Source: Chrysoporthe austroafricana | Taxonomy: Eukaryota; Ascomycota; Sordariomycetes; Diaporthales; Cryphonectriaceae | Reading direction: 5' to 3' | DNA length: 64,000 nt | Assembly (NCBI GenBank): GCA_001051155.2 | Contig: JYIP02000009.1 | Location: 682,001-746,000 of the forward strand | Part shown: positions 3,689 to 30,635 of the stretch, one piece after another | Layout: each line of letters begins with the position of its first letter | How positions within the stretch are numbered: position 1 is the stretch's first letter | Made by a program: the position numbers and the translations under genes | Notes under the pieces: model-generated | Database searches by the model: none | Seen by the model: the letters and a program-made list of their open reading frames with translations, nothing else | Told to the model about the DNA's origin: nothing

Positions 3689-5119
3689 ATGCATTGCGAG
3701 CAGAATCCTGATTCCGAGGCGGCAAAAGCCGGCCCGTGTATCGATGACTTCACCAATACCTTCGTTCTCTGCCCGGCATCGCAGTCAAATCAAGTACATC
3801 AAGTCCTGTCGGAGGTACCAAGGGCGCTGGACCCCGCTAGACAACGGCGGGTCCATCGGAAGTCTCGTACCGGTTGTCAGAGCTGCAAGAGGCGGCGGGT
3901 CAAGGTATGTAGACGGGTGCTCGGCTCCGCAGTCATCCTCACGAAGCTGATGGAAGCGGAACGGCAGTGCGATGAAGGAGACCCGTGTGAGAACTGCAAT
4001 AGAAGAGGAGACCGCTGTTTACGCCCAAGGCAAGGGAGCAAGAGAACCTCAAGCCCGGTCTCGGTCTCGACGCCGAAGCAGAGCATTCTCCCGAGCCCCA
4101 CGTCAACCTGGGCGGGTGTGAACCTGTTCGACCTGAGATTGTATCATCACTTCCAGACAAGCACGCGTCAGACGCTCGTGTTTGAATCTGCAGTTTGGGA
4201 GTATGTGTCTCAACTCTGCTTCGAGTTCGACTTTGTGATGGACGCCATTTTATGCGTTTCAGCACGTCACCTCGCCTTTCTGCGGCCAGATGACTCGACA
4301 TACCCGATCGCTGCGACCAAACACCTCTGTCGTGCATTGTCCAGGTTCCGCCTCGCGCTATCCGACGAGCTCATTGCCGTCCATCCTGACGCATTCATTG
4401 CGACCTCCAGTCTGCTGCAATTCGAGGTATGGGCCGAAACGGACTTTGTCGTCCCCAAGGATGGCAGAACATCATCATTCGATCCATCGAAGGACCACAT
4501 ATTCTCGTTTTGCTCCAGTTTGAAGGAGATGTTCCTCAAAAGTATTCCGCCTGCGGCCGTGCAAAAGTCGTCATTGATACCACATATCCAGCATAATGCT
4601 GTGAACACACTGGCAACACAGGTGCATTTGAGCAAGGACACGTTGGCCGAATACCAAAACCTCCTCTCTTACCAGCGTCCACTTACTTCACAGCTTCTCG
4701 ATATCACCTCGCCGCCTCTAGAGGGCGCGGGAAATGGCGTTGTGCGCCAAAGCCGCGATCCTAGTCCCAGGCAGCACCAGGCTCCTGATGAAGTCTACGG
4801 TGGATATTCACATGTTCTTGAACAGCTTTCGCTTATTCTCTCATTGCTGCCCAAGAATGGCCATCAAGGCCCTATTCCCACAGAACCAGCCTTGATGCAA
4901 AAGCTGATAAGACACATCCAGTCATTTCCAATACTATGTCGTGGCACCTTCGCGTCCATGATTGCTCAGGGCGACCCACACGCACTGATCTTGCTGTACC
5001 ACTTTTATCGAGCTGTGAGAAAACTGCTTCACCCGACAAAGCATTGGTGGGCTCACAAGAGGGCAATGGTATTGGAGCCAGCGTTAAAGCAATGGCTGCT
5101 CAGAGTCTGTGTTGTGTAA
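3689..5119 (+). CDS. Zn(II)2Cys6 transcription factor, UPC2-like
   Basis: Two exons, 3689-3904 and 3968-5119, give 455 aa. The 63-nt intron (GTATGT...CAG) is a multiple of three, so the unspliced frame stays open. Removing it restores a perfect zinc cluster, C-x2-C-x6-C-x5-C-x2-C-x6-C (CQSCKRRRVK then CDEGDP-CENC-NRRGDRC). Introns inside this cluster are common in fungal regulators. The cluster sits near residues 62-90. The remainder resembles the ligand/activation region of the sterol-uptake-control (UPC2-like, Fungal_trans_2) group: FDLRLYHHF, DAILCVSARHLA, IATSSLLQFEVW, and a Trp-rich end (HWWAHKRA). Inferred role: nuclear DNA-binding regulator. It opens the block containing the SDR-like, LamA-like, P450 and LamB-like genes and may control it, but no target is shown by sequence. 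The first ATG was taken; the N-terminal ~55 residues are uncertain. Confidence 0.85.
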   Translation: MHCEQNPDSEAAKAGPCIDDFTNTFVLCPASQSNQVHQVLSEVPRALDPARQRRVHRKSRTGCQSCKRRRVKVCRRVLGSAVILTKLMEAERQCDEGDPCENCNRRGDRCLRPRQGSKRTSSPVSVSTPKQSILPSPTSTWAGVNLFDLRLYHHFQTSTRQTLVFESAVWEYVSQLCFEFDFVMDAILCVSARHLAFLRPDDSTYPIAATKHLCRALSRFRLALSDELIAVHPDAFIATSSLLQFEVWAETDFVVPKDGRTSSFDPSKDHIFSFCSSLKEMFLKSIPPAAVQKSSLIPHIQHNAVNTLATQVHLSKDTLAEYQNLLSYQRPLTSQLLDITSPPLEGAGNGVVRQSRDPSPRQHQAPDEVYGGYSHVLEQLSLILSLLPKNGHQGPIPTEPALMQKLIRHIQSFPILCRGTFASMIAQGDPHALILLYHFYRAVRKLLHPTKHWWAHKRAMVLEPALKQWLLRVCVV

Positions 5120-5524
5120 ACAACAGACTGAAAAGAAGAAGGGGGGGGGGGAAGGCAGCACCCTTCTCGATGTAACCATGACGAGTACCAGTCTAGTAGA
5201 AACAGGCAGTATGTCAAGTGCGCTGTACTGTCTAACGCACTGTTTCTACTATACCTGGGAAGACATCCATAGCACAACGACGCCGCACGTGATAGGCTCC
5301 TGCATTATTTTTATGGCAATGTCATGGTTTCCGGGCGCCTTGCCCTTTTGAGCTCGTATCGCTCTGCTTGGCTTAGCGCAACTCTTGTAGGATGAAGCAA
5401 CGGTTAGTATCGTTCGGGCGCGACATGGCCTCCAGGGAATGATGAGTATAAAGGCAGCTGGGCTGTCCAGCCCTCTATGGTTGAGACCGGTTGTGCAACC
5501 CGGACTCGGAACATCTCATTCGCA
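5120..5524. other. Intergenic: G-run and TATA-bearing promoter
   Basis: A run of 11 G (5141-5151) lies just past the stop codon of the regulator. The rest is the promoter of the downstream SDR-like gene, with a TATAAAG element at 5447-5453. No ORF of note is present. Confidence 0.6.
5447..5453 (+). promoter_or_regulatory. TATA box of the SDR-like gene
   Basis: TATAAAG lies 72 nt before the chosen ATG at 5525, a normal distance for a fungal core promoter. It supports 5525 over the in-frame upstream start at 5477, which would leave almost no 5' leader. Confidence 0.5.
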
Positions 5525-6610
5525 ATGGTCGCTCTGTCTGAAGTCGTCGCGTCAAACAAGCGCATCGCCGCCACGTTCTCTGACCCACTGGTGGCAGTCT
5601 TCGTAGGAGGCACCAGTGGCGTAGGGGAATATACGGTAAAGGCTTTTGCCAGATACGTTCCTCGGCCCCGGGTCTACATCGTTGGGCGCTCTCAGGAGTC
5701 AGCCGAACGGATTATCAAGGAATGTCAAGATACAAACACGGATGGCACGTTCAAATTCATCAAGGCCGATATTAGCCTTCTGAAGAACATCGACGACGTG
5801 TGCCGCCAAATCAAGAGCAAGGAGCAAGCGATCAACCTCCTTTTTCAGACGCAAGGGACCATGGCGTTCTCAAAGAGTATGTTATGCGCCGCCCCCCTTC
5901 TCTTCTCTTCCTACCATCTCCCTGACAATATCAAAGCAACATCTGAGGGTCTCCCGCTCGCCTCCGGTACCCTCATGCATGGGCGTACACGCTTCATTCT
6001 CAACCTTCTTCCCCTGCTACAGAACGCAAAGACCCTCCGTCGCGTTGTCAGTGTTGCAGCCGCAACATGTGAGGGTCCCATCGACACCAACAACATCGCG
6101 GGCACCGGCTTCAGTCTACATCAGATGCGCGACCAGTCCGCATCCGTTCATACTTTGCTACTAGAAGAGGCGGCCCGGCGTGCGCCCGATGTCAGCTTCG
6201 TCCACACCGTTCCAGGCGTTGTCAAAAGCGGCATCATGCGAGATGTTGAGCCGACCCTCGGCTTGTCCATCATCATCGCCATTAGCAAGCTCCTGGCACC
6301 GCTCATCGAGACTTCGCCTGACGAGTGTGCTGAGCGACATGTGTTCTTTGCTACGACCTCCAGGTATCCAGCTCGACGCCAGGGTGCGGCTCTTGCCGGT
6401 GTATCGTTGGGTGGAAACATGGGTCCGGCTAGGGGAACTGACGGCCAGATAGGTAGTGGTACATATTCGGTCGACAACAAAGGCGAGAGCGCTTCGCCAA
6501 AGGTTGAGGAGCTGCTACGTCAGTTCAGGAGTGACGGTACCGCAGAGAAAGTATGGGAGTACATTCAAACGGACTACATGAGGATCACGGGTGCGGAAGT
6601 GGCTGCATAG
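5525..6610 (+). CDS. Short-chain dehydrogenase/reductase-like protein
   Basis: Exons 5525-5876 and 5937-6610 give 341 aa; the 60-nt intron (GTATGT...AAAG) is in phase and would otherwise be translated. The N-terminal Rossmann motif is clear: VAVFVGGTSGVGEYT, a TGxxxGxG variant near residues 23-37. It is followed by VYIVGRS at the second strand, which normally selects NADP(H). Further family landmarks are ADISLL, the QGT turn, TSEGLP, RFILNLLPLL and VHTVPGVVKSGI. The usual catalytic YxxxK is not seen: the matching place reads LMHGRTRF. The protein belongs to the divergent fungal SDRs found beside secondary-metabolism genes, so activity and substrate are uncertain. It lies on the strand opposite the LamA-like gene, tail to tail. 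Start chosen at an ATG in good context below a TATA box. Confidence 0.8.
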   Translation: MVALSEVVASNKRIAATFSDPLVAVFVGGTSGVGEYTVKAFARYVPRPRVYIVGRSQESAERIIKECQDTNTDGTFKFIKADISLLKNIDDVCRQIKSKEQAINLLFQTQGTMAFSKSMLCAAPLLFSSYHLPDNIKATSEGLPLASGTLMHGRTRFILNLLPLLQNAKTLRRVVSVAAATCEGPIDTNNIAGTGFSLHQMRDQSASVHTLLLEEAARRAPDVSFVHTVPGVVKSGIMRDVEPTLGLSIIIAISKLLAPLIETSPDECAERHVFFATTSRYPARRQGAALAGVSLGGNMGPARGTDGQIGSGTYSVDNKGESASPKVEELLRQFRSDGTAEKVWEYIQTDYMRITGAEVAA

Positions 6611-6740
6611 GCCTGTTGACTTGAGCACAGAGGTCTCTCCGGACACACCGGCATCTATATGGCTAGGATATGCGTGAATTTACCTTGTTCTGAGCAGAGA
6701 GGTCCCAATGAAATCATTTCCCTTCTTCTTCAACTGTTCT

Positions 6741-9700
6741 TCAATCGTTAGACGTCGCAGTCCTTACAAGAATCAATGGCTTTCCGCTCTGCACAATATC
6801 ATTTGGCGTGACCAAGACTTTCTCGATCTTAGATCCCTCCAGTTTGTCGTCCACTAGCACGTTGATCTCCATTTTCATGGCCTCCAGGATCGTAGCAACT
6901 TGCCCTTTTTGTAAAGTCTGCCCCTCCTCAACAAGGACCTTCCAAACATTGGCATTCACAGGCGCATCGATGTGCTCAATATTCGGGTCTACCTCAAGTG
7001 TTAGCTCGCATAGTCACACTGGTCGAAGACAGATTAGAAACGAAAAGAACGTCTTACCATCCAGTAGCTCCTGTATGGTGTCAACGGACACTCCGCGAGC
7101 CTTCCTCTCTGCATCCCATTTAGCGAGCAGCTCCTTCTCAAGGTTGACCATCTTCTCCTGATACTGCTTCTGCCTCTGTCTCATGGCTTTCGCTTCACTC
7201 TCCACTCGTTTTAACATCTCGTTGTGGACTCGCATGTCAAACGTCGTCTCCTTGACCTTGTAGTCGTATCTCCCACTTCTGAACAATGCCATCTGCCTGT
7301 CGTACTCCTCCTCGCTGACCTCTTCAAAGGTGATGACATCCATATCTTCAAACAGCCATGGCTTGTCCTGCGAGAAGCTCTTTTTGTAGCCCAGTGTATC
7401 GACCCCCGGTATCGTCATACCCGTCATCATGTATCCGCCTGGCGAGTCGACTGGATAGATCGCGAGACAGGACCCGCCCCACGATACCGTGCCCTCAGGA
7501 GTAAAGGTTCGGCTGGGGTTCATCTTGGGGGCGTTGAGTCTGTGTCGAGGGTCTGCAGGAAGGCATTCCGGGAGTGCCATGAAGAATCCCACGCCTACGC
7601 AGACAAATTCTGCCGTGAGCCACAACTTGCGGAAGTCTTCGACAGAAATGCCGTTGTTTTCGGCGACGAAACGAAACGTGTCGGGCAAATAGCTCGCATA
7701 CGGTCGTTGGTTCGCCATGTATCTCTCGATAGACTCTGTGAGCCGAGAGTGTGTGAAGGTCAAAGGTAGAATGAAAGTGCGGTTGGGCATGCTGATAGCG
7801 CTGAGATCGCCGAGGTCGTCCTCCAGGGAGACGAGATACCCCAGAAGCTGGGACTGGGGAACTACGAGCCCATTATAGTAGATCATCATGGAGTTCCCGA
7901 TGCACACAGTGTTGTAGATGCCCTCTCCGGTGGCTGAGAAGCGGATTGCACCTGTGCCAGCCTCGAGCTTGCGCTTCAGAGCTGTTGTACGGCATTTGTG
8001 GTTGATATCGAAGCTCCCGTGCCCATAGTCCACAAGAAGATAGTCGTCGCCGGCTTGAGAGTAAGAGACTCTTGGTCGACTTGCTGACTCTTCAAGCACC
8101 TTGAGAACAGCACGCTGAGGCGAGGAGGTACTTGGCGGTGTGGACAGACTTTCAAGTCCTTCGATCATATCAAGTTCTCCGGTGGAGAGACCTCGGGCGA
8201 TGTCTCCGATGAATGACTCGGTTTTCCGTCGGTATTCCAGTGCGGTCACAAGTGAGATAGGGTGGAATCTCACTTTGTTTCCTGCACGCAACTGACCCAG
8301 CTTCCAATAGTCCGCCTTCACCACAGTGAATGGCACAACAAATCCGCCGAAGTCAGGACAATCCATTGGGAATATGGCAGGCTCGTCACCAGTGAAATTG
8401 ATGCCCCCCATCGGATACCCGTACTCAATAACATTGCTGGGATGTGATCCGCCCTCTCCACCATCACTTCTCGCCCACTTTGGACGAGGGCCTATCAGGC
8501 GGATCCCGCCTCTAGCTGCGTTGTGTGAGACCTCCCATGCAGTGTCGTAAAACATGTCGATATCCTCAGGATCCAAGAATCCCTCGCAGTAAGGTCCATG
8601 CATGACCTGGATATCCCATTCTTCTGTATAAGGAGGAACGAGATGTGGAGGGATTTGCAGCGGCTTTGAGGTATGCGATTCGTCTGGAATATGGTCCGCG
8701 ATGCGCAAGAGATCTCCAGTACGTAGAGGCCGGCCTTGATACCCGCCCACCAGCGTCATAGGGACCGTGGCCTTCGAACCAAACCACTCAGCGACATTCA
8801 GAAAGCCCCCATATATCGCGAGGTATGCCCTGCATCCTTTATTCGAACGTGTCTTTCCGATAGTCAACCGCTGGCCTGCAGATATCTTTACTCTCTGCCA
8901 CTGGGGGAAATCCTTCCCATCCAGTACCACTGAAATTTCCGCCCCGGTCAAAGCCACGACCGCGTCACATAGGAACATCAGATCTGGGCCGGTCAGCGTA
9001 ATCTCGAGTCCTTCTTTGCCGGGTGCATTGCCAACCAAGGCATTAGCAAGCTGAAATGCCACGGGGTCCATGGGTCCACCATGGCCAAAGCCTCTTCCTA
9101 TCGTTGGACGTCCGGGATAGTCCTCGACTAGAGTATAAGAGCCCCCAGCTAATACATCGATGGCTGAAGGGCAGAAATTGAAATCTGACAGAAACTGGGT
9201 GATTGTGTTGCCTGATTGGAACCTAGGAGACTGTATGATAGCTAGGAGGAAGTCCAGATTCGTAGGTGGCCCGCAGACGTTAGATTGTGCAAGCAGAGTT
9301 TGCAGCTCCTCGACAGCTTGTGTTCTGTTTGGTGCATGCTGGATGATCTTTGCAAGCAAAGGATCTAAAGAGATCTACGGTCAGCCGGGGATCATGAAAC
9401 CCTCCTTGTGACGCCGTTCACTCACCGTAATTAGGGCTGATCGTCAAGCCAGCTCTCACCCAAGTGTCGATTCTAGTCCCGGGCAAGGTTTTCCACTCAA
9501 CTTTCTGGAGTAGTCCGGGAGATGGAGCAAAGTCTTTGACCGGATTCTCGGCGTATATTCTAACTTCAATAGCGTGGCCGCTCGGCTCTTTACACCGGTC
9601 TTCGAGATCCTTCATGGCTTCCGCAGCCAAACCACCTTTCCCAGCTAGCTGGGCGTCGGCTTGCCGAAGCATGAGCTCAACAAGGTCGACACTGTAGACC

Positions 9701-10692
9701 AACTCAGTGACACCGTGTTCGACTTGCAAGCGAGTGTTCATCTCGAGGAAGAAGAAATCGCCCGTATTGTCGTCGACTAAGAATTCTAATGTGCCCGCAC
9801 TAGCATATTTGACGGACTCTGCCAGCGACTTGGCAGCAGCGCAGAGGATGTGTCTCAGGTTCCCCTTCTTCTGCGCGATGAAAGGACTCGGGCACTCCTC
9901 AATGACCTTCTGATGTCGCCTCTGGATGCTGCATTCTCTCTCCCCTAGTGTGGCCACGTTCCCCTGGCCATTGCCGAACACTTGGACTTCAATGTGATGA
10001 GCCGCAGGGAAGTACTTTTCCAAGAACATACCTGCATTCTTGAATAGCGCTTCGCCTCGAGATTGGACGACCTGAAAGGCCTGCCTCAACTCTCCTTCGT
10101 CATTGCACGTCTGCAGGCCCATCCCGCCGCCTCCAGCCGTCGATTTCAACATAACTGGAAAACCAAGCTCCCGGGCCACTCCCAGTGCACTCTCAAGGTC
10201 GGCCAATAGACCTTGCGTGCCTGGCACGATGGGCAGGGCGGTCTTCACGGCCAGCTCACGGGCCGTGTGCTTGAGGCCGAACTGCTCGATGCTTTCAGGG
10301 CTGGGCCCCACGAAGGCTAGCCCGGCCGCCGCAACGGCGCGTGCAAAGTCGGCATTTTCGGACAGAAAACCGTAGCCCGGAATAATTGCCTGTGCGCCCG
10401 CCCCTCTGGCGATGCTGATGATCTGATCGCCATCCAGATACGCTCGCGCGGGGTCGCCGGAAAGCAGGTGGGACTCGTCCGCCTGAGCCACATGCTGAGA
10501 TGCGGAGTCTGGCTCGGTATAGATGGCTACGGTGCATATTTTAAGGTGTCTGGCAGCCTTCACATGAGCTCACTGTAGGCATAATGTATGAAATGGTCAC
10601 GAAGTGCGGCGTGTCGCGTACCTTGCTGTTTTGATTATGCGCACGGCGATCTCCCCACGGTTTGCGATGAGAAGAGTCTTGACTTTCTCCAT
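6741..10692 (-). CDS. lamA: LamA-like biotin-dependent carboxylase (BC-KipA-KipI-BCCP)
   Basis: Four exons on the minus strand (10692-10622, 10549-9426, 9364-7058, 6988-6741) give 1249 aa; introns are 72, 61 and 69 nt, all GT-AG. Domain order: biotin carboxylase, residues ~1-450 (LIANRGEIAVRII, Gly-rich ATP loop GGGGMG, EMNTRLQVEH); a KipA/PxpC-like (AHS2) domain ~470-780 (GFGHGGPMDPVAFQLANAL); a KipI/PxpB-like (AHS1) domain ~825-1045 (GFFMALPECLPADPRHRL); a charged helical linker; and a biotinyl carrier domain at ~1168-1249 with EAMKM, biotinylated Lys near 1206. This is the layout of urea carboxylase without the N-terminal allophanate hydrolase of yeast Dur1,2. A LamB/PxpA homologue lies 5.5 kb away, so I favour the LamA (lactam utilisation) assignment over urea carboxylase. 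Expected role: ATP- and bicarbonate-dependent activation of a cyclic amide. The substrate is not shown by sequence. Confidence 0.85.
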
Positions 10693-11060
10693 TCTTTGAA
10701 TCTGAGAGAATATGCGCAGCCGGTTCCGTGTAGCATATGAGGCCAGAGATGAATCTAAAGGTTGACAGGATCTCAGCAGACTAAGACGTCCACAGATCAG
10801 CGCTTTATCAGGCGTCGGTCTATTCTGCTGTTTGTTTTATCTACGTCTCCTCCGCCGAGACCTTAAGGTTTGGAATAAGCAGCAGGCCGGCAAGGGTTCA
10901 CGCTATCTGTAGCAATTTTCTGCCCTGACAGCTACATGGCTCCTGCGAACTATCTGATAAGGCGCCTCCTGCAGATCTCCGTATGTACCGAGGAGGTAGA
11001 TGATAGCATGAAGGCGGGGAAGCACTTGGCGATCCGGCAAACCTCCTTTCGCCCGTTGGG

Positions 11061-11123
<63 letters not shown>

Positions 11124-11439
11124 AAAGGAAAAGAAAGGAAGAAACTAGAAAGATCACTCGCTTGTCGAAAAACGGAGGAGTTTAATCAAATAAACAAAAT
11201 AGGAAAAAGAAATCTCTACGACAAGTCTTCGTGAGGAAACCATCGCATATAGTGCTTTTCGGAGAAGACCTCCAAGGTCACTTTCCCTGAATCTCAAGAT
11301 TGGAAAACTAGAAGCACGCGAGCCGCACCACAACCAAAAGGCGAGACGTAGTCTAATCCTCTTTTATGTACTTTCAATGTCTTCTCATTTATAGAATACC
11401 GTCGCTTCCTTCTTTATACAACCCAGTCAAGCCGCTAGA
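10693..11439. other. Intergenic between lamA-like and P450 genes
   Basis: It contains the 5' leader and promoter of the LamA-like gene, a very long A-tract (11066-11121) followed by purine-rich sequence, and the 3' flank of the P450 gene. No coding sequence is seen. Confidence 0.6.
11066..11121 (+). repeat. Poly(A) tract, 56 nt
   Basis: An uninterrupted run of 56 A is followed by AG-rich sequence. It lies between two minus-strand genes. It could be the tail of an old retroposed insertion or a slippage-expanded homopolymer; no tRNA-like or LINE-like body is recognisable before it. The exact length is prone to sequencing error. Confidence 0.8.
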
Positions 11440-13122
11440 TCAAATCTTCAACCTAACCTGCGCCAGCACGGGCTTTGCGCGCACCAACAACGGGCCCTTG
11501 ATCCACAGGGCGTAGGTCTTCTGTTTCGCCCAGTCCTTACTCTCCTCACAGAGCTCGAGGTCGTACTTGAAGAGCATCGTGGCAAGGATAAGTCGCATCT
11601 CACACTTTGCCATATTCTGCCCCAAGCAATTCCGAGGACCGAACCCGAACGGCTGGTGCGCGGTGACGGCGTCATCAGCGTATCTTGGATCTGTCCCCAG
11701 CCAACGCTCGGGAGCATAGCTTTCCGCATCCTTGAAGTTGGCCTCGGAGTGGTATGTCGACCAGTGGTGGACCGAGACTCGTGTGTCCGCCGGGATCCAA
11801 TTGCCACAGATCATCGCTCCTCCTGGTTGGACCAGCCGGGGGCTCCCAATCGGCACTGGTGGATAGATTCGGAGTGCTTCTTTGAGACCTATTATCGAAG
11901 CACAATCAGCAGCCTGATCTTGAAGATTGCTGGACTCGCATGGTTGCCCGACTCACATGCGTTTAGATATTTCAAGTTGGCGAGGTTGTCGAAGTTGATC
12001 TCCTCCAGGCTGCGGAAGCTGCTCCGGACTTCTTCGACCAGCATCTTGAATCGTACCTGGTCGCGCAGCAAGTAGTATATAGCGCCGCTCAGGAGAGTAG
12101 CTGCGATAGTCCTCCCGGTCAGCACATTTGGATAGAAGCGGTGCTTGAGATCCAGCAGTCTCCTCGGTGCTCTTACCAGTCGTTTCCGATCCAGCTAGCA
12201 TGAAAATCTCGGAGTTCGAGTGCATCTCGTCAAGCGTGAGGCCCTTGCCCTGTTCGACAGCCTCCATAACCAGATTCCACACATCAGGCTGGTCTGAGCC
12301 CAGCTCCAGGCGCTTGTCGACGCGTTCCGCTGAATGCCTGCAGTGAGCCACTCTTTGTTTGGTGACCCATTTCGGCTCGAACCGGGTGCAGATAGCATGC
12401 AGAATCGGATAATAACAGATGACCGACACGAAGGGCAACATGTGCAAACTGTCAAAGATCGCTCGAACCCAAGGGCTGTACTCGTTCTTTGCAAGAAGGT
12501 CGAGGTTCTGGCCGAAACAGAGCTCGGCCATCACATCGAATGTGGTGAAGTTGAGCAGTTGGGTCATCTCCACAGGCTTCTTGCCGTCATTGCCCACCTC
12601 CGCTATCTTGTACATCAGGAGATCGACATACTTCTTGAACAGGTGCTGCTGTTGCTTCAGCGCGCGCTCCGAGAATGCGGGTGCGAAAAGACGCCGATAA
12701 CGTGAGTGGGACTCTTGATCGGTCGTGAGTATGCTCTGGGTATCTTGGATCGATCAGCCAGGCCGCATCTTCGAGCCTCGCAGCGGATCAACAAGCAGGT
12801 TCTTACTATTCACAGGCTGGGGAAAGAACTCCTGTGCCTTCTCAGTAACCTTGGGGCCATGAACATCTTGCCATGCTTGTGCGGAGGCGTAGCTCAGGTC
12901 GGTTGGGCCGAATCTGACCACTGGTCCGTACTTGTCATGGAGGTCTTTCATCCACGGGACGTCATGGCCGCGGAAATATTCTGACCAATATGGAAGGCGA
13001 CTGAAAGCACACACCCTTGGCCCAGGAAAACCGGCGAGAGGGTGAAATGTCAGACAGTAAATCGCAGTAGCGATGTAATATACTGCTAACGCGGTGACAA
13101 ACAGGAGGATTGAGTCCAGCAT
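11440..13122 (-). CDS. Cytochrome P450 monooxygenase (CYP65-like)
   Basis: Four exons (13122-12807, 12743-12177, 12100-11957, 11888-11440) give 491 aa, a normal P450 length; introns of 63, 76 and 68 nt are GT-AG. Seen in order: an N-terminal membrane anchor (SILLFVTALAVYYIATAIY), the HPLAGFPGPR hinge, I-helix AGSETT, K-helix EALR (ExxR), YAPERW, and the haem loop FGFGPRNCLGQ with the axial Cys. All key residues are present. The look is that of the CYP65 family, which includes isotrichodermin C-15 hydroxylase and other secondary-metabolite hydroxylases. Role: ER-bound, NADPH-P450-reductase-dependent oxidation of an unknown substrate. The gene lies between the LamA- and LamB-like genes on the same strand, so it may act on the same compound. 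For the first intron the donor GTAAGA with the acceptor CCAAG restores both frame and the SILTTDQESHSRYRR motif. Confidence 0.88.
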
Positions 13123-16100
13123 GGCTCCGGGGCGACGAGGTGCTCTTCAAGGGCTTCCTTGGGGTGCCGAGAGATTCGAGGGCTTCCTGGGAGTAAGAAC
13201 TCGCAACGGTTGCATTTTGGGATAACCAAGAATCCGAATTAATGCTGTCACATCATAGAAAGCAGACGCAGTGATACTAATACTGCAATACCACCCAAAC
13301 TGTATGGTCTAAGCAGCTAGCCGAATGTGGGCATACTTCCTCGGGAATTGCTTGAAATTCTTACATCCCCTTGTTGCTTCATGCCGCCCCCACAGGATGC
13401 TCACCTCGGCGGTGGCGCCTAGCTGCACCATGTTTTACTAGCAGTACGACGTCGCAAGTCTACAGGGTCGGTGTGCTGTCGTATGGTATTGCGATTCTTC
13501 CCCACGAACTCCACTTGACCGTGGAATTGTGAGGATGATTCCTCGTATGAGAGCTTTTCTCGCGTGATAGTGGGTAAGCAGGAGCAGGCCATCGAAGGAG
13601 ATCTTCATCAATCTACTCTGAAATCTTATCCAGAGGCCACTCCACTTTCATGCATGCGTCCAGATGCGTAATATAGATGCTTGGGAGCTTGTATTACCTA
13701 ACGGAATGGCGAGCAGAGCTGGGCGATATAAACAAGTCGCATCAAGCGCTTACTGTTCAATCATCGACGAGTATTCCTTAGCAGTGTCTTACAAGTTTGA
13801 AATAAAATGCATTGCGTGGCTCACTCTACGGCTATCGCAGGTGGCTTGGGCCATTCGGCTCACTACTGTGGTAGTGGATTACATGGTATCATCGCCAGGC
13901 CACTCCAGATCCTTGGCTCGAAACTCTCACAGATATATGTACCACTCAAGCTCATGGAGAGTGTCCGGGTACCCCTGAGCTCTCGCATCGCTGTCCCCGG
14001 GACATTCGACTTATCAGCACATTCCAGCTCTTGCTACGGTAGCATTGTATGGGTGAGTTCGGACCAGCGTGCATGTCCCAAGATGCAAGGACGGTGGAGC
14101 TGTTACTCGTGCTCTGCTTACCTGGCGCCTGATCTTGCCGTTTCGAGCACTATGAGCAACCAACGGTAGCGTGCTTGCCTCGTGGACGGTCCCGGATTTA
14201 GAGTACCCTGGAATCCCAAGCACAACGTGGCATTTCCGAAGGTACGGTGTGCTGGGTACTGCGCGTTGGGACAGCGTATTGGAACTCTGCTAGGGTCTCC
14301 GCAATCCTGCGAGTCGACAAGAGGCCGAGTTGCCGAGGGGGGATTTTTCGTCCCGCGTTCTCAGACAGTTGTCTACGTCGGCACAGTCTGTGTAGGAACG
14401 GGAAAGTCGTTTTCTCCCCTCTCTGGGTAGGCTGCGTGGCGATTACTCAACTACAAATAATCCGTAATATCGCTGGTAATCAGGCAGAAATCAATCTGCT
14501 ATCGTTCCTGTAAACATGGGTATACCGACTATCAGAGTAGATCCTGCGATATGACACACTTACCCTTGGATCAACCAGCTAGAAGTGCTACCTTAACCTG
14601 TCCCGTCTGACAAAACTTGAGGATTCTCCCTGCGATGTCAGCTGCCTTCCTGTTCAAGGAATATGTGGGGCTGAAGACAGCATTGCCAATGAGCTGCAAC
14701 TACTTACTACCGTAGGAGCGGCGTAGTCTGGACCTTGCCACAGGTCTCGGACTTCGTCAGCCCAGACGGACTGGCCCAGGGGTGTGACGGTGTTTTGCGT
14801 TGCCCGCTTTCCCGGCACCCAATTTTTGTGTTTTCGGAGCTGAGCCTCGTCATGTTGCAAATAGTCCTGGACGCTTGAGGCTTGGACCAGCAAGAATCTA
14901 GTGATTCACAGAGGGTGAAATAGCGCCTTTTCAACCTCACCAGAACGCTGGTGCCCTTAGTTACTCTTCTTGCCTCTTCTCTAAGTTAGGTGGAGTAGAT
15001 CACTAAGCCAAACCATCCTCTTCTACCTCGTCTGAGTTAATTAATTAAGTGGAGCAGATCTCTATGCGGGGCTCTTGATTTCCAGTGGAGCCGCGCTCCG
15101 TTATGGTGTCGCCTATCAGTGTTGTCCCATTGCGGTATGATCCCAGAGAACTTGGATGCAGAAGACATTGCACGATCCCCGGAAGCTCTTAAAGGGAAAG
15201 TGATCCGTGTATAGGTATTGTGCGACTGTCAGGGCCGGCTGCGGCTTTCATTGAGCTGCTACCGTTATGCGGACGGGTAATTTGTAGCCGCAAGATCACA
15301 ATACTTCAGTGAAAGTCATGTAATTCGGTGCTTGGATCCGTTCTGGCTACTGAAGATCCTCAATCCGTCTGTACTGAGTTGGAGGGCACTTTCCCATGAC
15401 ACCCAAAATCGGTCTCGGGTTAGAATCGACGCAATGGTCAAGAACCAGCACACCTAACCAGTAAGTAGCGAACAAGCCACACGCGGTTCTATTGCACGCC
15501 ATGTGATTGGCCACGAACACAACCCACTGCATCTTTCTCCTGGCGCCCTCCACAGCATCAACCACCTCGAATCCCCAGTACATTAACAGTCGGGACTGAT
15601 TAGGACAAGGCCTAACTAGGTTACCTGGAGGAATGAGGGAAAGAGTCGTAACACGCGCAAGGACCATATATATTGGACAATGGCTGCTCATGCCCACTGC
15701 GCGTTGCCGGCGTGGACCACTCCATACAAGATCGTGTTGCATTTTACTGTACTTACTGTCCCCTCGCTGCGCTAGTCAGACTGTTGCAGAAGAGTTCTGA
15801 TGAAGCCTTTGCTATTCCGAATTATTAACAATCATCGCAATTCGATAGCATCAATTTTGGCGTGTACGGATAAGATTCCCCTTTTATGTTGTGAGATTGA
15901 TCTTTGCTACATTGCCCTAGTCTTCGCTTACACGTACTGTATATTGATATATGCTATATCCACCCCTTGGGGGTCCCTAACAAGAGAGTAATGCCGAATA
16001 TCCATCACCACCATTCAGATACAAGCTGTTTAATCCACAAGCAAGTCGACGGGGCGTCTCATCCACCACCGTTCCGATCTAGAACGAATTACAAGTACTG

Positions 16101-16149
16101 GTACCTATATTCGACTGGCTAAGTGCTAACTATCAGACAAGCCGAAATC
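13123..16149. other. 3-kb gene-free spacer
   Basis: Only short frames without family motifs occur. A TATAAA near 13727 has no gene after it. The hexamer-rich stretch 14990-15070 holds two imperfect copies of GTGGAG(T/C)AGATC. The longest ATG frame (15347-15742, minus strand, 131 codons) shows no recognisable domain. The spacer separates the LamB-like gene from the P450 within the cluster. Confidence 0.5.
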
Positions 16150-16994
16150 TCACGGCAGGCCATTCGCACGGTTATACTCATCCACAACCTCCCTCGTGGC
16201 CTTCACAATCTCTAGACAACCGGGTGAGTCAGAGTGGCAGCACACCGAGACTTGGTACTCTTGCGTGGGCAGCGTGACTCTCTCACCCGTGACCGCGGTG
16301 ACTGTCGACGTCTCGATCTGCTGGCGAACGTGCCTCCGCACCTCCTCGAGGTCCCACGGCTTCTTCTTGCGATCGATGACCAGCGTCCCGTCCGCGCGGT
16401 ACCTGACGTCCCCGTAGAACTCGGCGACGAAGTCCAGCCCCAGCTCCTTGGCGACCTGCTCCTGGAACGTGCCCGCCAGCCCGAAGACCTTCATCGGCCG
16501 CCCGCCGGCGCCCCTGAACCTGGCAATGCCGACCATGACGGCCCGGCACACCTCGACGTCCCGGCACATCATCCCGTAGAGGATCCCGTGCGGCTTCACG
16601 TGGTGCAGCTCGAGGCCCTCGGCGTCGAGGAAGCCCTTCAGCGCACCCACCTGGTAGATCACGTTGGCGGTGTGCTCCTCCGGGTCGAGCTTCATCTCGC
16701 GCCTGCCGAAGCCGAGGATGTCCGGGAGGCCGGGGTGCGCACCGATCTTGACGCCGTGCTGTTTGCAGAGCAGGATAGACTCGTGCATCTTCAGTGGGTC
16801 ACTGCGGTCCACGAGTCAGTGTCCGAGAGGCGAGTTCCGTGGATTCAGGGAGGAATTGCTCACCCGGCATGAAATCCACAGGCAATATTAGCATGGTCGA
16901 TGAGGGGGATAAGTTCCTCGTCGGGACCGCACTTGAAGTTACCATAGCCCTCGCCTAGGTCGACGTTAATGAAGGCTGCACGCTTGGGGGCCAT
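16150..16994 (-). CDS. lamB: LamB/YcsF family protein (PxpA-like)
   Basis: Two exons (16994-16864 and 16801-16150) joined across a 62-nt GT-AG intron give 260 aa, the usual family length. Landmarks: [12 protein letters not shown] at the first strand, [13 protein letters not shown] spanning the splice junction, [22 protein letters not shown] and a terminal [10 protein letters not shown]. These include the His and Asp residues that make up the predicted metal/active site. The family is named after A. nidulans LamB (lactam utilisation). In bacteria the homologue PxpA is a subunit of the ATP-dependent 5-oxoprolinase PxpABC, whose PxpB/PxpC parts match the KipI/KipA domains of the LamA-like protein in this window. 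Inferred role: cytosolic partner of that carboxylase in lactam ring opening. Start chosen at MAPKRAAF, close before the conserved strand. Confidence 0.88.
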
Positions 16995-18284
16995 TGCATC
17001 TGCGGCGCTGTTCGGTTGCTGCTGTGGATGGTCAAGTCACTCAAATCAAGTGTGCGTAGCCCTGGTAATGCTCCTGTTCTTCGTCAGTCATCAGGACCCA
17101 GATTATACACCACGAATTGCTGTTTCACCCGCTCACGGCCACTTGCACATACCTCGATCGTAATATAACACCGCTGTTGGATGATTTTGCAGGGATACCG
17201 CCTGATGGAGGATACTTGCGGTGAACCTCTTCTTTAGTTAGGTACTGTGGAACGGTGCACATTGATGTCATGATAAGGTTGACCCCGCCTCGTGTTAGTA
17301 TACCAATTATTTGGATCTCGACGTACGCCGGCAAATAGCTTATCTCATCGGGAAAAAATGAATACGGACGCTCCATCTAATAGAGAGGTTCACGAGATTG
17401 TCTCATCAGCCCGTTTCCTGGGCATTATATCGCACAGGTTTGTCGGATAATTACTAGGCGGAGGTTCCAGGCTTTCGGAATGAAATTGGGTGTAATTAAT
17501 ATATAGCATACGCCTTGCGAGGCAATGCCAGCTCCAAATAGCTATGCAAAGCATTTTTCAAGGTCCATCCGTATCAGATGCATTCCCACCCGTGCTCGAA
17601 GTTAGTAGATAATTAAGTATGGCTGTCGTGCTACCGCATACATTATTTGGGGAGCCCCCACCAATAGCCACGTTAAAGATTTTTTGATTTTTTTTTTTTA
17701 AAAAAAAAGAAAGACTTTTAAATCGCCTCGTCACGCTTAGCCGTAGCGACGCTAGTCGATAAAACCTACCAGTACGGGATGCTGCCGAGGCACTACCTCA
17801 ACGGCCTCGAGGTACATACCTATGCGGTCGATCTCGATGGCGTCCACGAGACCGAGCTGCCCTTGCAAGCTGTGGTACCCAATATGCCGCCGTCCATAAG
17901 CGCTAGGGTGGCGATGCAGAAAGATTGTGGCGCATGACTTCTCTCAAGAGATGTCAGAAAGCCGAATTGGTTCATCAACAGGCCAGGAAACTCCGTCCCT
18001 CCGAAGAAGACCAGGATTGCAAATTCCACCAGCCAACCAAATACCCTTCGCAATGTGTCATATAGTCATAAATGCCTTCCCTTCCACGAGATCCGATATT
18101 GTCACCCTATAGTGCCCCGTACATCACCTGTCGTTGAAGACTTTTCGTGGCACGCCCGTGGATGATCGAAAGCTTGCTCGTTCCAGAACACCAACGCTTT
18201 CCCGTGTTTGTAGCCAGCCCGTCATAGATTTGTGGTCAAGTATAGAAAGTTGGTTCTTTAATCGCTCTTTTGCTTCAGCAGCGA
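16995..18284. other. Intergenic: lamB promoter side and regulator 3' flank
   Basis: No gene is seen. A T-run followed directly by an A-run lies at 17688-17708. Short frames on both strands lack motifs. Confidence 0.55.
17688..17708. repeat. T12/A9 homopolymer junction
   Basis: A run of T is followed immediately by a run of A, forming a self-complementary AT tract. Probably low-complexity spacer, possibly nucleosome-excluding. Confidence 0.5.
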
Positions 18285-20163
18285 CTAGATGAACCAGGGC
18301 GCGGCGGTATCGAAGTTCATCAACTCCCACCACCTGAGCGGCTTGACCCTGTCCACATCCGCATGAAGGTCCTGCTGCTTCCAATAGTTCTCGATCAGAG
18401 CCCTCAGCACGAACACATTTCCGATCTTCCGGTCCTCATCCATCCGGTCCAGAGCCCGCATGATCTTGATCCTCTGCTGGTCCGTCTGCGACTCGCACGC
18501 CACCACGAACAGCGGCCAGGGACTCGTGCAGATCTCCAGGCCGGCAAGCACATCGAACGCTAGATCTAGCCAGGTGGCCTGCCTGGCGGCGTCGGTGCTA
18601 GGGCAGATGACTCGCAAGTACAGGATGGCGGCGATGCGATACAGTTCGGCAGTGAGCCGGATCTTGGTCTGCTCCTTGACTGACTGCTGCGCGTGGTCCG
18701 GAGGGAGTGACTGCTTGAGCCGGACGAGGCGGTCCTGTAGGCCCTGGCATGTCCACATCACAGAGGGAAATTCGGGCCGCAGGTATTCCTCGGAGGATTT
18801 GCGAGCCGCGATGGAACGCAGCTGGTTGATGTGATGGACAATCTCCATGATCTCGATGGAGCAGCCGAGTGAGCCGATTATCTAGGTGATGTGATGAGCA
18901 GGTGAAAATGAGAGGGGATCAGGAAGACTTACGACGCTCTTGTCGAGCTCACTGCCTCTGATCAGCTCAAGTGACGCAGTGCCCTCGTATTGATGCTTGT
19001 GTGGCTGGCTGAAGGCACCGAGGATTTCCTACTGCGTGTTAAAAGCTTATTGCGGAGCCCAAGCGCTTTATCCTAATCTTCTTGAGGCGCCAAGACGGAC
19101 CGTCAAAGTGGATGAAAGGGCTACTTGCGTGATATAAAAACCAGGTGTTCAGGAAGTTATAGTCCAGGGGCCCCCCTTTCTTGTCGGCGTACCGGTGCAG
19201 CAGACTCCTGGAACCGTTCAGATGTAGATGCCAGTTGCCTTCGGCCTCATCGAAGACCTTTTCACTATCAGTCTTACAGATGCAAAAGCATATCTGGGGC
19301 AAAACGGCTTACATTGTACACGCACAACATCATGGACGCAGCGATCTGAGGCTCAATCTGTCCGTCGAGGATGGATTCGCTCTCTAGTGAGTGGGATAGC
19401 AGTTTGAGCGCGTTTGTCTTGTAAGGCAGAGCAGCGCCAGAGCCGTATCGGTGAAAGGCAGAAAGAGCGAGGATAGCATTCAGAAGACCTTTCGTGGCGT
19501 GGCTATTGCCGGCCATTGCCATGGGGAGTATTTCTTGCCGAAACCCATTGTTGGCATCGATGGTAGAGATCATGCCGGCAATTCTCTCTGTGTCTCCAGG
19601 GAGGTCAGACTCTGTCACGGGCAGAGGAACGACGCAGCTCACAATATAGGAGCAGGCCCGGCTCCTGTCCCTGAAGCTCGGGGACAAGGGCGAGACTCTG
19701 CTGCGGCCGGGTGTTGGGGTTGCGGTAGAGAGACAGGGACGCGAGGTCCCCGCGGTTCTGCTCGATATCATCGAATGAGATGTTGAGGAACTGTTGGCCA
19801 TAGTGAAAGCCCAATGAGTGGTCATGTTCCGGGTCGATGTGGGCCGGCAGTCTGGATATTCTCCTACGCCCATCTGGTATATCAGGCCATGCAAGCCTTA
19901 TCCCATACCCAAGGCATTCTCGACCTGTTCGTGTACAGTTGTTGCAAACAGGAAGACCCTTATCACAACCAATTTTCCGTCCTGTATGCGGGCGACCGAG
20001 GGCGTTAGTAAGAACCCATGCGGGAAGCAGGTGAGACGGGCCAGCAATCTTTGGAGGCCCATCGTAGCCAGGGGCGTGGGGACGGGAGCGTAATATGATG
20101 AGATGCATATAGTTACTTACCCTTGCATGTCCAGCAGCCTTGGGCGGCCTGGCTGGCCGTCAT
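18285..20163 (-). CDS. Zn(II)2Cys6 transcription factor (Fungal_trans_2 type)
   Basis: Six exons (20163-20121, 19981-19643, 19593-19313, 19257-19129, 19028-18933, 18881-18285) give 494 aa. The N-terminal cluster is complete once the 139-nt first intron is removed: GCWTCKGRKIGCDKG then CNNCTRTGREC, i.e. C-x2-C-x6-C-x6-C-x2-C-x6-C at residues ~10-37. The regulatory domain follows: STIDANNGFRQEILPMAM, LNAILALSAFHRYG, AASMMLCVYN, WFLYHEILGAF. The second intron is only 49 nt, with a CTGAC branch site. The fourth intron fits only as GC-AG (CAC/GCAAGT...TAG), which rebuilds the conserved WFLYHEILGAF. All exon phases agree. It is the last gene of the LamA/P450/LamB block on the same strand and a good candidate for its local regulator. 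Introns were placed by eye; exons 3-5 carry most uncertainty. Confidence 0.82.
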
Positions 20164-22776: not shown

Positions 22777-24214
22777 ATGTACAGGACGGCCCTCTCGAGA
22801 TGTGCGCGGCTGACTGCACCAGCACTGCAGGCCGGCGCCCGCCGAAGCTACGCAGCCTCCGCCTCCGCGCCGCCGTTTGACTGGCAAGACCCTCTCAACG
22901 CGAAGAACCTCCTCACGGAGGAGGAGCTGGCGGTAGCCGAGACGGCGGAGAAGTACTGCCAGGAGCAGCTGCTCCCAAGAGTCCTTCGTACGCGCCCCCG
23001 ACCCACACCGCGCCGCTCCTCCTCATCCGCGGCGCCCCCCCTCCCGTGTTGGACGGTCTGCTAACCCACGGCCTGTGCGTATTATAGAGGCCTACCGCGA
23101 CGAGAACTACGACCGCAAGATCCTGTCCGAGATGGGCGCCCTCGGTCTCCTCGGCGCGACCCTCGACGGGTACGGCTGCGCGGGCGCCTCGACGGTGGCG
23201 GGCGGGCTGATCACGAAGGCCGTCGAGCGCGTCGACAGCGGGTACCGGTCGGGCATGTCGGTGCAGTCGTCGCTCGTCATGGGAGGGATACACGAGTTCG
23301 GAACTGAGGAGCAGAAGGAGAAGTTCCTGCCCGGCATGGCCAAGGGCGAGGTGCTGAGCGCGTTTGGGCTGACGGAGCCGAACCACGGCTCCGACCCGGG
23401 CGCGATGGAGACGACCGCGCGGCCGCACCCGAGCAAGGAGGGCTACTACCTGCTGAGCGGCAGCAAGACATGGATCACGAACAGCCCGATCGCGGACGTG
23501 CTGATGGTGTGGGCTCGGCTCGCCGAGACGGGCAAGATACGCGGGTTCCTGGTAGAGAGGTCGCGGTGCCCGCCCGGCACACTCGAGACGCCGCCGATCA
23601 AGAACAAGAACGGCCTGCGCGCGAGCATCACGGGCATGATCCAGATGGACGACGTGCCGGTGCCCAGGGAGATGATGTTCCCGCACGTCGAGGGCCTCCG
23701 GGGCCCGTTCTCGTGTCTCAACAGCGCGCGCTACGGCATCGCGATGGGCACGATCGGGGCGCTGGAGGACTGCATCGCGAGAGCGAGGACGTACGCGCTC
23801 GAGAGGAAGCAGTTTAAAGGGAACCCGATCGCCAAGTACCAGCTGGTGCAGAAGAAGCTCGCGGATGCGGCGACGGACGCGGCGTACGGCATGCTGGCGG
23901 CGGTCCAGGTGGGGCGGCTGAAGGACGAGGGCAAGGCGACGCCCGAGATGATCAGCATGGTGAAGAGGCAGAACTGCGACCGCGCGCTGCAGGGCGCGAG
24001 AACGCTGCAGGAGGTGTTCGGGGGCAACGCGGTCAGCGACGAGTACGGGGTGGGGAGGCATGTGGCGAATCTATTTGTGACGCAGACCTACGAGGGGCAG
24101 AGTGACATTCACAGTAAGTCAGAGGGCTATTCTCGTCAGGGTTCGTGTGGCTGACTCTCCTGCGCAGGCTTGATACTTGGAAGGGCCATCACCGGCATCC
24201 AGGCGTTCGTTTAG
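22777..24214 (+). CDS. Glutaryl-CoA dehydrogenase, mitochondrial
   Basis: Three exons (22777-22987, 23088-24113, 24168-24214) give 427 aa; introns are 100 and 54 nt. The N-terminus is an Arg-rich presequence ([17 protein letters not shown]...RRSYA), as expected for the mitochondrial matrix. The mature part starts [17 protein letters not shown], which is typical of glutaryl-CoA dehydrogenase. Further marks: [14 protein letters not shown] (substrate-binding Arg), [21 protein letters not shown], and [19 protein letters not shown], where the Glu is the catalytic base. Reaction: FAD-dependent dehydrogenation and decarboxylation of glutaryl-CoA to crotonyl-CoA, in lysine, hydroxylysine and tryptophan breakdown, passing electrons to ETF. 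The last exon carries only the C-terminal 15 residues. It lies 2.6 kb from the lactam-type block; a metabolic link is only a guess. Confidence 0.93.
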
Positions 24215-25835: not shown

Positions 25836-26897
<1,062 letters not shown>

Positions 26898-29800: not shown

Positions 29801-29909
29801 ATTTTTACAGTCTCAGCTCTCCCCGAGAGACGGCACAGGTTGATTGTGACGCTGACAACATCCCATCTCACCCCACACTCTCATCCGCGCAACCCGACTC
29901 CTCACAGCC
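26898..29909. other. 3-kb intergenic stretch with possible SINE
   Basis: No protein gene recognised. A C-run lies near 28248-28257. A tRNA-like head followed by a poly(A) run (about 28695-28969) is listed separately. Frames on both strands are short and motif-free. Confidence 0.5.
28695..28969 (+). mobile_element. Possible SINE-like retroposon
   Basis: An A-box-like stretch (CAGCGCAGTGGAAAGCC, about 28704-28720) and a B-box-like stretch (GGGTTGCAGATCC, 28751-28763, in a small GACGG/CCGTC stem) are spaced as in a tRNA gene. They are followed by about 190 nt of unrelated sequence and end in 19 A (28951-28969). This is the layout of a tRNA-derived SINE. I could not find a convincing target-site duplication, and the tRNA arms are degenerate. 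Confidence 0.3.
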
Positions 29910-30635
29910 ATGGCCTCAGTCCGCGCCGTGAAGGCGCTCACCTGGGGCACCATCGGCGCAAACCTCTACGTCTTCGGCAGGTGGCACGTCATGGCGGCCG
30001 ACCCCAAGGTCGCGAAGGAACCCCGGTCGCCAGCCTACCTTGAGGCGCAGGCGCGGCACCAGAGGTACATGGTTGACCACTTCACGCTGTCGCGGCGCAA
30101 CATCGACGAGGGCCGCTGGTACACGGCGCTCACGTCCGCCTTCAGCCACCGGAGCCTGCTCCACCTGGCCGTCAACATGTTCATGGTCAACGAGGCCGGC
30201 AAGATCGCGAGCTACGTCGGGCTCGGCCCCTGGCGCCTGGGCGCCCTCGCGCTCGGCTCCGCGCTGGGCGGCTCCGCCGGCTCGCTGTACGACAGCACCC
30301 GGCGCGTGCGCGCCGGCGAGCCCGACGTCCCCGGGCTGGGCGCGTCCGGCATGGTCCAGGGGATGCTGGTGGCGACGATGCTGGCCGCACCGTGGCTGCC
30401 GATGCGCGTCATGTTCATCCCCGTCGACATCTCGTACCGGACTGTGGTTGTGGGCTTCATCGCTTGGGACATGTACCAGCTGTACGAGGAGAGGACGTCG
30501 GGGCACAGGAGGGAGAGCTGGGCGGGCTCGGGTTCGTACATCGGGTATGCGGCGCATCTGGGGGGCGCCGCGTTCGGGACGGTCTTCTACCTGCTGGCCA
30601 TGCGGAGGGGTCGGCGGCTGCCGCCTAGGTTTTGA
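29910..30635 (+). CDS. Rhomboid-family intramembrane serine protease
   Basis: Single exon, 241 aa. Rhomboid landmarks: WYTALTSAFSH, then HLAVN (His85 and Asn89, oxyanion side chains), GLGASG with the nucleophile Ser146, and YAAHLGGAAFG with the catalytic His216. Several hydrophobic helices lie between them, so the dyad is complete and an active protease is expected. The N-terminus (MASVRAVKALTWGTIGANLYVF) is short and basic-hydrophobic. The FSH...H...N-M spacing recalls the mitochondrial PARL/Pcp1 branch, but location cannot be settled from sequence. Role: cleaves transmembrane substrates within the bilayer. It stands alone with long flanks and converges with the dehydratase gene downstream. 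Confidence 0.88.
   Translation: MASVRAVKALTWGTIGANLYVFGRWHVMAADPKVAKEPRSPAYLEAQARHQRYMVDHFTLSRRNIDEGRWYTALTSAFSHRSLLHLAVNMFMVNEAGKIASYVGLGPWRLGALALGSALGGSAGSLYDSTRRVRAGEPDVPGLGASGMVQGMLVATMLAAPWLPMRVMFIPVDISYRTVVVGFIAWDMYQLYEERTSGHRRESWAGSGSYIGYAAHLGGAAFGTVFYLLAMRRGRRLPPRF

What the first reader, a model, noticed from the sequence alone, without database searches (positions are those of the whole stretch)
3689..20163. Candidate lactam/pyroglutamate utilisation cluster built on LamA and LamB homologues
Seen: a BC-KipA-KipI-BCCP protein and a LamB/YcsF protein lie 5.5 kb apart on one strand, with a P450 between them and flanked by an SDR-like gene and two Zn2Cys6 regulators. Known: A. nidulans lamA/lamB are needed for lactam (2-pyrrolidinone) use, and bacterial pxpABC encode an ATP-dependent 5-oxoprolinase often next to biotin carboxylase genes. 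Inference: this is an expanded lam locus in which a P450 and SDR act on the same lactam-like compound and local regulators replace or add to the global control of the classical locus. I know of no description of a lam locus with these extra genes.
Basis: partly seen in the sequence, partly recalled or inferred. Interest (0 to 1): 0.78.

Follow-up and report, generated by a model that had tools for sequence, protein, structure and literature searches.

The report
Ordinary fungal lactam-use gene pair
The stretch holds a fungus's pair of genes for opening lactam rings, a known kind of nitrogen-scavenging system; the oxidase, dehydrogenase-like and regulator genes beside it look more like neighbours than parts of an enlarged pathway.

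Summary
The genes are really there and look intact. LamA (1249 aa) and LamB (260 aa) are the only matches found in the genome for CT_A_B, CT_C_D and LamB_YcsF. They lie on one strand with a P450 between them; an SDR-like gene and two Zn2Cys6 regulators flank them.

The core reading, a lactam-utilisation (lam) locus, is supported. The expanded pathway is not. P450 relatives and LamB lie on contigs of different length in 7 of 7 organisms named in both lists. Regulator TF2 shares a contig length with LamB in 1 of 9, and has close relatives in Diaporthales species with no LamB named among the 120 listed rows. The SDR-like protein lacks YxxxK. No promoter motif ties the lam genes to the P450. SDR and TF1 linkage was not tested, and the contig method had no positive control.

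A LamB plus 'urea carboxylase' segment with other extra genes is in print for Trichoderma (PMC8675399, passages). This genome has urease and no AH_C domain, so a urea role for LamA is unlikely. Verdict: a rearranged but ordinary lam locus, probably of one of the Diaporthales.

The parts
6741..10692 (-). LamA: biotin carboxylase - CT_A_B - CT_C_D - biotin carrier, 1249 aa, 4 exons (10692-10622, 10549-9426, 9364-7058, 6988-6741)
   Evidence: model; domains; TIGR02712 1271.8 bits (cut-off 1303.85); one search aligned over residues 4-1238 to 3va7 (KLLA0E08119p); EAMKM biotin site at 1203
16150..16994 (-). LamB/YcsF (PxpA-like), 260 aa, 2 exons (16994-16864, 16801-16150)
   Evidence: NF003814 243.1 bits (cut-off 226); one search match to 2dfa over residues 9-252; tree
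11440..13122 (-). Cytochrome P450, 491 aa, 4 exons, haem motif FGFGPRNCLG; probably a bystander between LamB and LamA
   Evidence: best hit 87% to Cryphonectria parasitica; contig lengths differ from LamB's in 7 of 7 organisms
18285..20163 (-). TF2: Zn2Cys6 plus Fungal_trans_2 regulator, 494 aa, 6 exons (one GC-AG intron)
   Evidence: relatives at 69-74% in 8 named Diaporthales rows (P0241-P0248; order checked for six genera)
5477..6610 (+). SDR-like protein, 357 aa, 2 exons; Pfam adh_short matched over residues 39-130 only; no YxxxK motif
3689..5119 (+). TF1: Zn2Cys6 regulator, 455 aa, 2 exons
   Evidence: Zn_clus 27.8 bits; Fungal_trans_2 17.8 bits, below the cut-off of 21
13123..16149 (.). 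3 kb between the P450 and LamB with no recognised gene, found once in the genome
   Evidence: 0 families in the 4 ORFs of 100 aa or more that lie there; bases 13130-16140 found once

Best explanation
This is the genome's single lam locus: LamA and LamB together form an ATP- and biotin-dependent lactamase that opens lactams such as 2-pyrrolidinone to omega-amino acids for nitrogen. Proposed steps, inferred from domains and relatives: the biotin carboxylase part of LamA uses ATP and bicarbonate to carboxylate biotin on its own carrier domain; the carboxyltransferase part passes the carboxyl group to the lactam amide nitrogen, as urea carboxylase does to urea; LamB, a hydrolase of the PxpA family (metal-dependent as recalled), opens the activated ring; the carbamate loses CO2 and GABA goes to GABA transaminase, encoded elsewhere. 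The P450, the SDR-like gene and the two Zn2Cys6 regulators are most likely neighbours without a conserved role in this pathway.
For: Domains, motifs and reading frames complete. One gene for each lam family. GABA transaminase over its cut-off at C17. No AH_C (allophanate hydrolase C-terminal) match in the genome, urease present, so urea is an unlikely substrate. Five loci with Hydantoinase_B, the eukaryotic-type 5-oxoprolinase or hydantoinase family as recalled, so 5-oxoproline could be handled elsewhere. P450 and LamB contig lengths differ in 7 of 7 organisms, TF2 and LamB agree in 1 of 9. No 9-mer common to the LamA, LamB and P450 promoters, none between LamA and P450. Published: AmdR controls lamA and lamB in A. 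nidulans (PMC8016842, passages).
Against: Six intact genes of typical cluster kinds in 16.5 kb is denser than uniform scatter. TF2 and LamB share a 3,096,806-base contig length in Xylariales sp. PMI_506. The chemistry of LamA and LamB was not tested; the substrate is inferred. LamA scores just under the urea carboxylase cut-off, so sequence alone does not exclude urea. In the bacterial set 21 of 24 CT loci had no LamB relative within the fetched flanks. The contig comparison has no positive control.
Confidence: 0.8

Rival explanations
1. Expanded lam pathway: the P450 hydroxylates a larger or aromatic lactam, the SDR-like protein acts on the product, LamA and LamB open the ring, and TF1 or TF2 switches the set on.
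For: All six genes intact and close. The P450 lies between LamB and LamA on their strand. Density above uniform expectation. TF2 shares LamB's contig length in Xylariales sp. PMI_506.
Against: P450 and LamB contig lengths differ in 7 of 7 organisms; TF2 and LamB agree in 1 of 9; TF2 has close relatives in Diaporthales with no LamB among the listed rows; SDR-like protein without YxxxK; no promoter motif shared by lam genes and P450.
Confidence: 0.08
2. TF2 alone is a true local regulator of the lam pair, while P450, SDR-like gene and TF1 are bystanders.
For: TF2 is next to LamB here (1,290 bases apart) and shares a contig length with LamB in Xylariales sp. PMI_506.
Against: Contig lengths differ in 8 of 9 organisms; TF2 relatives at 69-74% in Diaporthales for which no LamB is named in the LamB list.
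Confidence: 0.1
3. LamA is a urea carboxylase and the locus serves urea use, as was left open for the like segment in Trichoderma.
For: TIGR02712 1271.8 bits, close to the cut-off of 1303.85; best PDB matches are a yeast protein and a urea amidolyase (3va7, 5i8i); PMC8675399 and PMC3073912 call such proteins urea carboxylase.
Against: No AH_C match in the genome and a urease present; paired with LamB, which urea use does not need.
Confidence: 0.04
4. LamA and LamB are a 5-oxoprolinase like bacterial PxpABC.
For: LamB passes 1 of 5 listed PxpA models (NF003814).
Against: LamA falls far below the PxpB and PxpC cut-offs (28.4 of 145.55 and 128.1 of 500 bits), and LamB below the other 4 PxpA models; five Hydantoinase_B loci elsewhere in the genome.
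Confidence: 0.06

Closest known systems
Aspergillus nidulans lamA-lamB locus (Katz and Hynes 1989; paper not held; details recalled)
   Same: Same two proteins. The A. nidulans amidase-free 'urea carboxylase' is 1,241 aa (PMC3073912, passage) against 1249 aa here; that it is LamA is recalled.
   Different: Divergent transcription in A. nidulans is recalled; here both genes run the same way with a P450 between. AmdR control (PMC8016842, passage) was not tested here.
Trichoderma 'urea carboxylase' plus LamB segment (PMC8675399, passages)
   Same: A urea-carboxylase-type gene and LamB together with extra genes and a regulator, adjacent in several lineages.
   Different: Extra genes there are an NADPH dehydrogenase, an MFS transporter and a Cys2His2 factor; no P450, SDR or Zn2Cys6 gene is named for that segment in the passage.
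Bacterial PxpABC 5-oxoprolinase
   Same: LamB is PxpA-like; the CT domains are related to PxpB and PxpC.
   Different: LamA adds biotin carboxylase and biotin carrier in one chain and fails the PxpB and PxpC cut-offs.
Yeast urea amidolyase (3va7, 5i8i)
   Same: Biotin carboxylase, CT and carrier parts aligned over residues 4-1238 of LamA.
   Different: No amidase part in LamA, and no AH_C match elsewhere in the genome.

Membership tests
Fungal lam locus | LamA with biotin carboxylase, carboxyltransferase and biotin carrier domains | tested here: met
Fungal lam locus | LamB/YcsF protein close by | tested here: met
   5,457 bases from LamA
Fungal lam locus | Adjacent, divergently transcribed pair as in A. 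nidulans (recalled) | tested here: not met
   same strand, P450 between; an arrangement, not a defining chemistry
Fungal lam locus | Needed for growth on 2-pyrrolidinone; AmdR control | not testable with these tools
   needs mutants and expression data
   0 of 7 organisms share a contig length; by eye, no positive control
   1 of 9 organisms share a contig length
Urea carboxylase / urea amidolyase | Passes the curated urea carboxylase model | tested here: not met
   1271.8 of 1303.85 bits
Urea carboxylase / urea amidolyase | Allophanate hydrolase available | tested here: not met
   0 AH_C matches in the genome; an amidase without AH_C was not searched for
PxpABC 5-oxoprolinase | PxpA, PxpB and PxpC models passed | tested here: not met
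   1 of 5 PxpA models passed; PxpB and PxpC models not

The most novel reading that the evidence does not exclude
In this lineage (probably Diaporthales) the lam pair has recruited a P450, an SDR-like protein and its own Zn2Cys6 regulator into a pathway that oxidises and then opens a substituted, perhaps plant-derived, lactam.
Probability: 0.07. Interest if true: 0.5.

Novelty: new member of a known kind. Interest (0 to 1): 0.17.

Why it matters
The locus fits the view that the short, amidase-free 'urea carboxylase' of many fungi is LamA, a lactam carboxylase paired with LamB, not a urea enzyme: here urease is present and the AH_C domain is missing. That would correct an annotation found in print, including the segment in Trichoderma that was left open as a urea cluster. 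The extra genes themselves add little unless co-expression is shown.

Tried and rejected
Considered and rejected: LamA as urea carboxylase; the lam pair as the cell's 5-oxoprolinase; a hidden or decayed gene in the 3 kb gap (0 families in 4 ORFs; found once); a common regulator site in the promoters. One search examined 24 motif types (HGATAR, CCAAT, SYGGRG, CGG-N0..20-CCG) in upstream stretches of 357 to 1000 bases against 200 first-order Markov samples; types with no hit were not printed. HGATAR, CCAAT and SYGGRG showed no excess (p 0.225, 0.43, 0.295). CGGN16CCG (p 0.025; 1 of 5 at LamA, 4 at TF1 and TF2) and CGGN8CCG (p 0.045; all 4 at TF1 and TF2) were nominally high, as expected among 24 tests. 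LamB and P450 upstream regions share six 9-mers, fewer than expected (15.4). The 12-mers shared by LamA and LamB upstream regions are A or T runs with at most one G or C.

Led nowhere: eight answered literature searches, of which long results were seen only as the top 15 or 20 rows; two searches listed the Trichoderma paper. PMC10512309 and PMC5610705 hold no lamA or lamB by word search. PMC13274462 and PMC8453981 (passages) gave nothing on LamA.

Limits: no fungal genome with gene order was available, so linkage rests on organism names and the longest_contig column of the hit lists, read by eye. Only the best 120 rows of each search are listed; rows without an organism name (sources lgn, jgi) were dropped from the counts. 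'No LamB' for a species means none among the 120 listed. In 3 of the 7 P450-LamB organisms both names carry a strain label (Ilyonectria sp. MPI-CAGE-AT-0026, Xylariales sp. PMI_506, Xylariaceae sp. FL0016). For the other four different assemblies cannot be excluded; for Apiospora marii the P450 rows bear two tag prefixes. Of the 9 TF2-LamB organisms the Ilyonectria strain name is cut off, and most TF2 relatives there are only 43-55% identical. LamA was not searched, so there is no positive control.

Full report
What is there. The window is part of a 48.15 Mb genome in 22 contigs, at C22:682001-746000. Six genes in 3689-20163 were modelled by hand with GT-AG introns, one GC-AG, and no internal stops. 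LamA (10692-6741, minus) has the six expected Pfam domains, including the biotin carrier in the last exon, and the motifs GGGGMG, EMNTRLQVEH and EAMKM. LamB (16994-16150, minus) matches the solved structure 2dfa over residues 9-252 of 260. The P450 (13122-11440, minus) has AGSETT, EALR and the haem motif FGFGPRNCLG. The SDR-like gene (5477-6610, plus) matches adh_short over residues 39-130, has only weak PDB matches (best E 4e-5) and no YxxxK. TF1 and TF2 carry Zn2Cys6 domains; TF2 also has Fungal_trans_2.

Copy number. LamB_YcsF, CT_A_B and CT_C_D each matched one gene in the genome (LamB as two exons). So this is the only lam locus found, and no urea amidolyase with CT domains was found elsewhere. 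The P450 belongs to a large family: 107 exon-level matches, the window's own exons included, from 87 scored of 198 candidates. The SDR-like protein has 13 matches, two of them itself. Zn_clus gave 149 matches from 150 scored of 219 candidates; the window's two regulators, whose zinc domains are split by introns, are not among them, so this undercounts.

Who the fungus is. The nearest named relative of the P450 is Cryphonectria parasitica EP155 (87%). TF2's nearest named relatives are Discula, Cytospora, Diaporthe, Gnomoniopsis, Coniella and Cryphonectria at 69-74%, all Diaporthales. A tree of 40 LamB rows, 39 of the 120 listed hits plus the window's, puts the window's LamB in a 12-row set (support 100/97) whose other 11 rows have no names and are mostly partial. 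Apiospora joins next (83/58, weak), then Phaeoacremonium (97/97). This fits ordinary descent and shows no sign of a recent transfer.

Does the neighbourhood hold together elsewhere? The hit lists for LamB, P450 and TF2, 120 rows each, give organism and contig length. Seven organisms are in both the LamB and P450 lists and in none do the lengths agree: Ilyonectria sp. MPI-CAGE-AT-0026, Xylariales sp. PMI_506, Apiospora marii, Xylariaceae sp. FL0016, Paraphaeosphaeria sporulosa, Periconia digitata and Dendryphion nanum. Nine are in both the LamB and TF2 lists: Xylariales sp. PMI_506 (agrees, 3,096,806), Xylariaceae sp. FL0016, Thozetella sp. PMI_491, Dactylonectria estremocensis, an Ilyonectria strain, Stylonectria norvegica, Pseudomassariella vexata, Talaromyces marneffei and Byssothecium circinans (all differ). 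Twenty-six are in both the P450 and TF2 lists and 4 agree: Cryphonectria parasitica (3,950,794), Apiospora aurea, Apiospora hydei and Clonostachys chloroleuca. In the last two the tags are about 1,600 and 6,000 numbers apart (PG997_003245 and PG997_004862; V2G26_005025 and V2G26_011117), so an agreement does not mean closeness. C. parasitica has both a P450 and a TF2 relative with no LamB among the 120 listed rows, weak evidence that these genes do not depend on LamB. All this was read by eye, without a positive control.

Regulation. Upstream regions of the six genes showed no excess of HGATAR, CCAAT or SYGGRG. No CGG-CCG spacing occurs upstream of the P450 among those printed, so none is shared with the lam genes, and no 9-mer is common to LamA, LamB and P450. 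LamA and LamB upstream regions share only A- or T-run words at 12 bases. AmdR, the A. nidulans activator of lamA and lamB (PMC8016842, passages), was not looked for.

How it most likely works. LamA aligns over its length with a yeast urea-amidolyase chain and scores just below the curated urea carboxylase model. The genome has urease and no AH_C match, so carboxylated urea would have no evident onward route. In 3 of 24 bacterial loci with a CT match a LamB relative lies directly before the LamA-like biotin carboxylase (L033, L036, L042); the other 21 have none in the fetched flanks, and a fourth LamB relative, in L051, has no CT match. Together with the A. nidulans genetics this favours N-carboxylation of a lactam by LamA and ring opening by LamB. 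Shown: domains, motifs, copy number, pairing here. Inferred: substrate, order of steps, product. GABA transaminase is present on another contig. Five Hydantoinase_B loci make a 5-oxoproline role less likely.

What is in print. A Trichoderma paper (PMC8675399, passages) describes an inserted 5-6 gene segment with a 'urea carboxylase', LamB, an NADPH dehydrogenase, an MFS transporter and a Cys2His2 factor, adjacent also in four further species, and says that whether it is a urea utilisation cluster is not known. PMC3073912 (abstract and passages) reports the amidase-free enzyme in many but not all Pezizomycotina, with repeated loss; the word lactam does not occur in its main text. In eight answered searches (top rows only) I saw no lam locus with a P450 and SDR; the library lacks most subscription journals.

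Judgement. Observation confirmed; lam core supported; expanded pathway not supported, with SDR and TF1 untested. The genes are closer than a uniform scatter predicts, which keeps a small probability on the novel reading.

Noticed in passing
22937-24154 (+): Acyl-CoA dehydrogenase (Pfam), glutaryl-CoA-dehydrogenase-like by eye, 2.8 kb past TF2; glutaryl-CoA would lie downstream of delta-valerolactam (recalled), but the gene may simply belong to the next, housekeeping stretch.
   Followed up: partly
11066-11121: A run of 56 A (T on the minus strand) in the LamA upstream region, possibly a length-variable tract.
   Followed up: no
G000 genome: No AH_C match and only one CT_A_B gene, whereas PMC3073912 (passage) reports urea amidolyase in the Sordariomycetes it examined except Neurospora crassa and close relatives.
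   Followed up: partly
26361-26897, 29856-30635, 31022-32638, 44726-46024, 48679-49287, 52534-53469, 58119-58997, 61154-62074: Eight ORFs further on match E2 enzyme, rhomboid, dihydroxy-acid dehydratase, a second acyl-CoA dehydrogenase, XPG-type nuclease, PSD13/Rpn9, ubiquitin hydrolase and a metallo-beta-lactamase-fold protein; the right part of the window looks mostly housekeeping.
   Followed up: partly
L007:1949-3460 (C22:663949-665460): Amino acid permease (AA_permease) about 20 kb left of TF1, with an MFS gene beside it.
   Followed up: no
   Followed up: no
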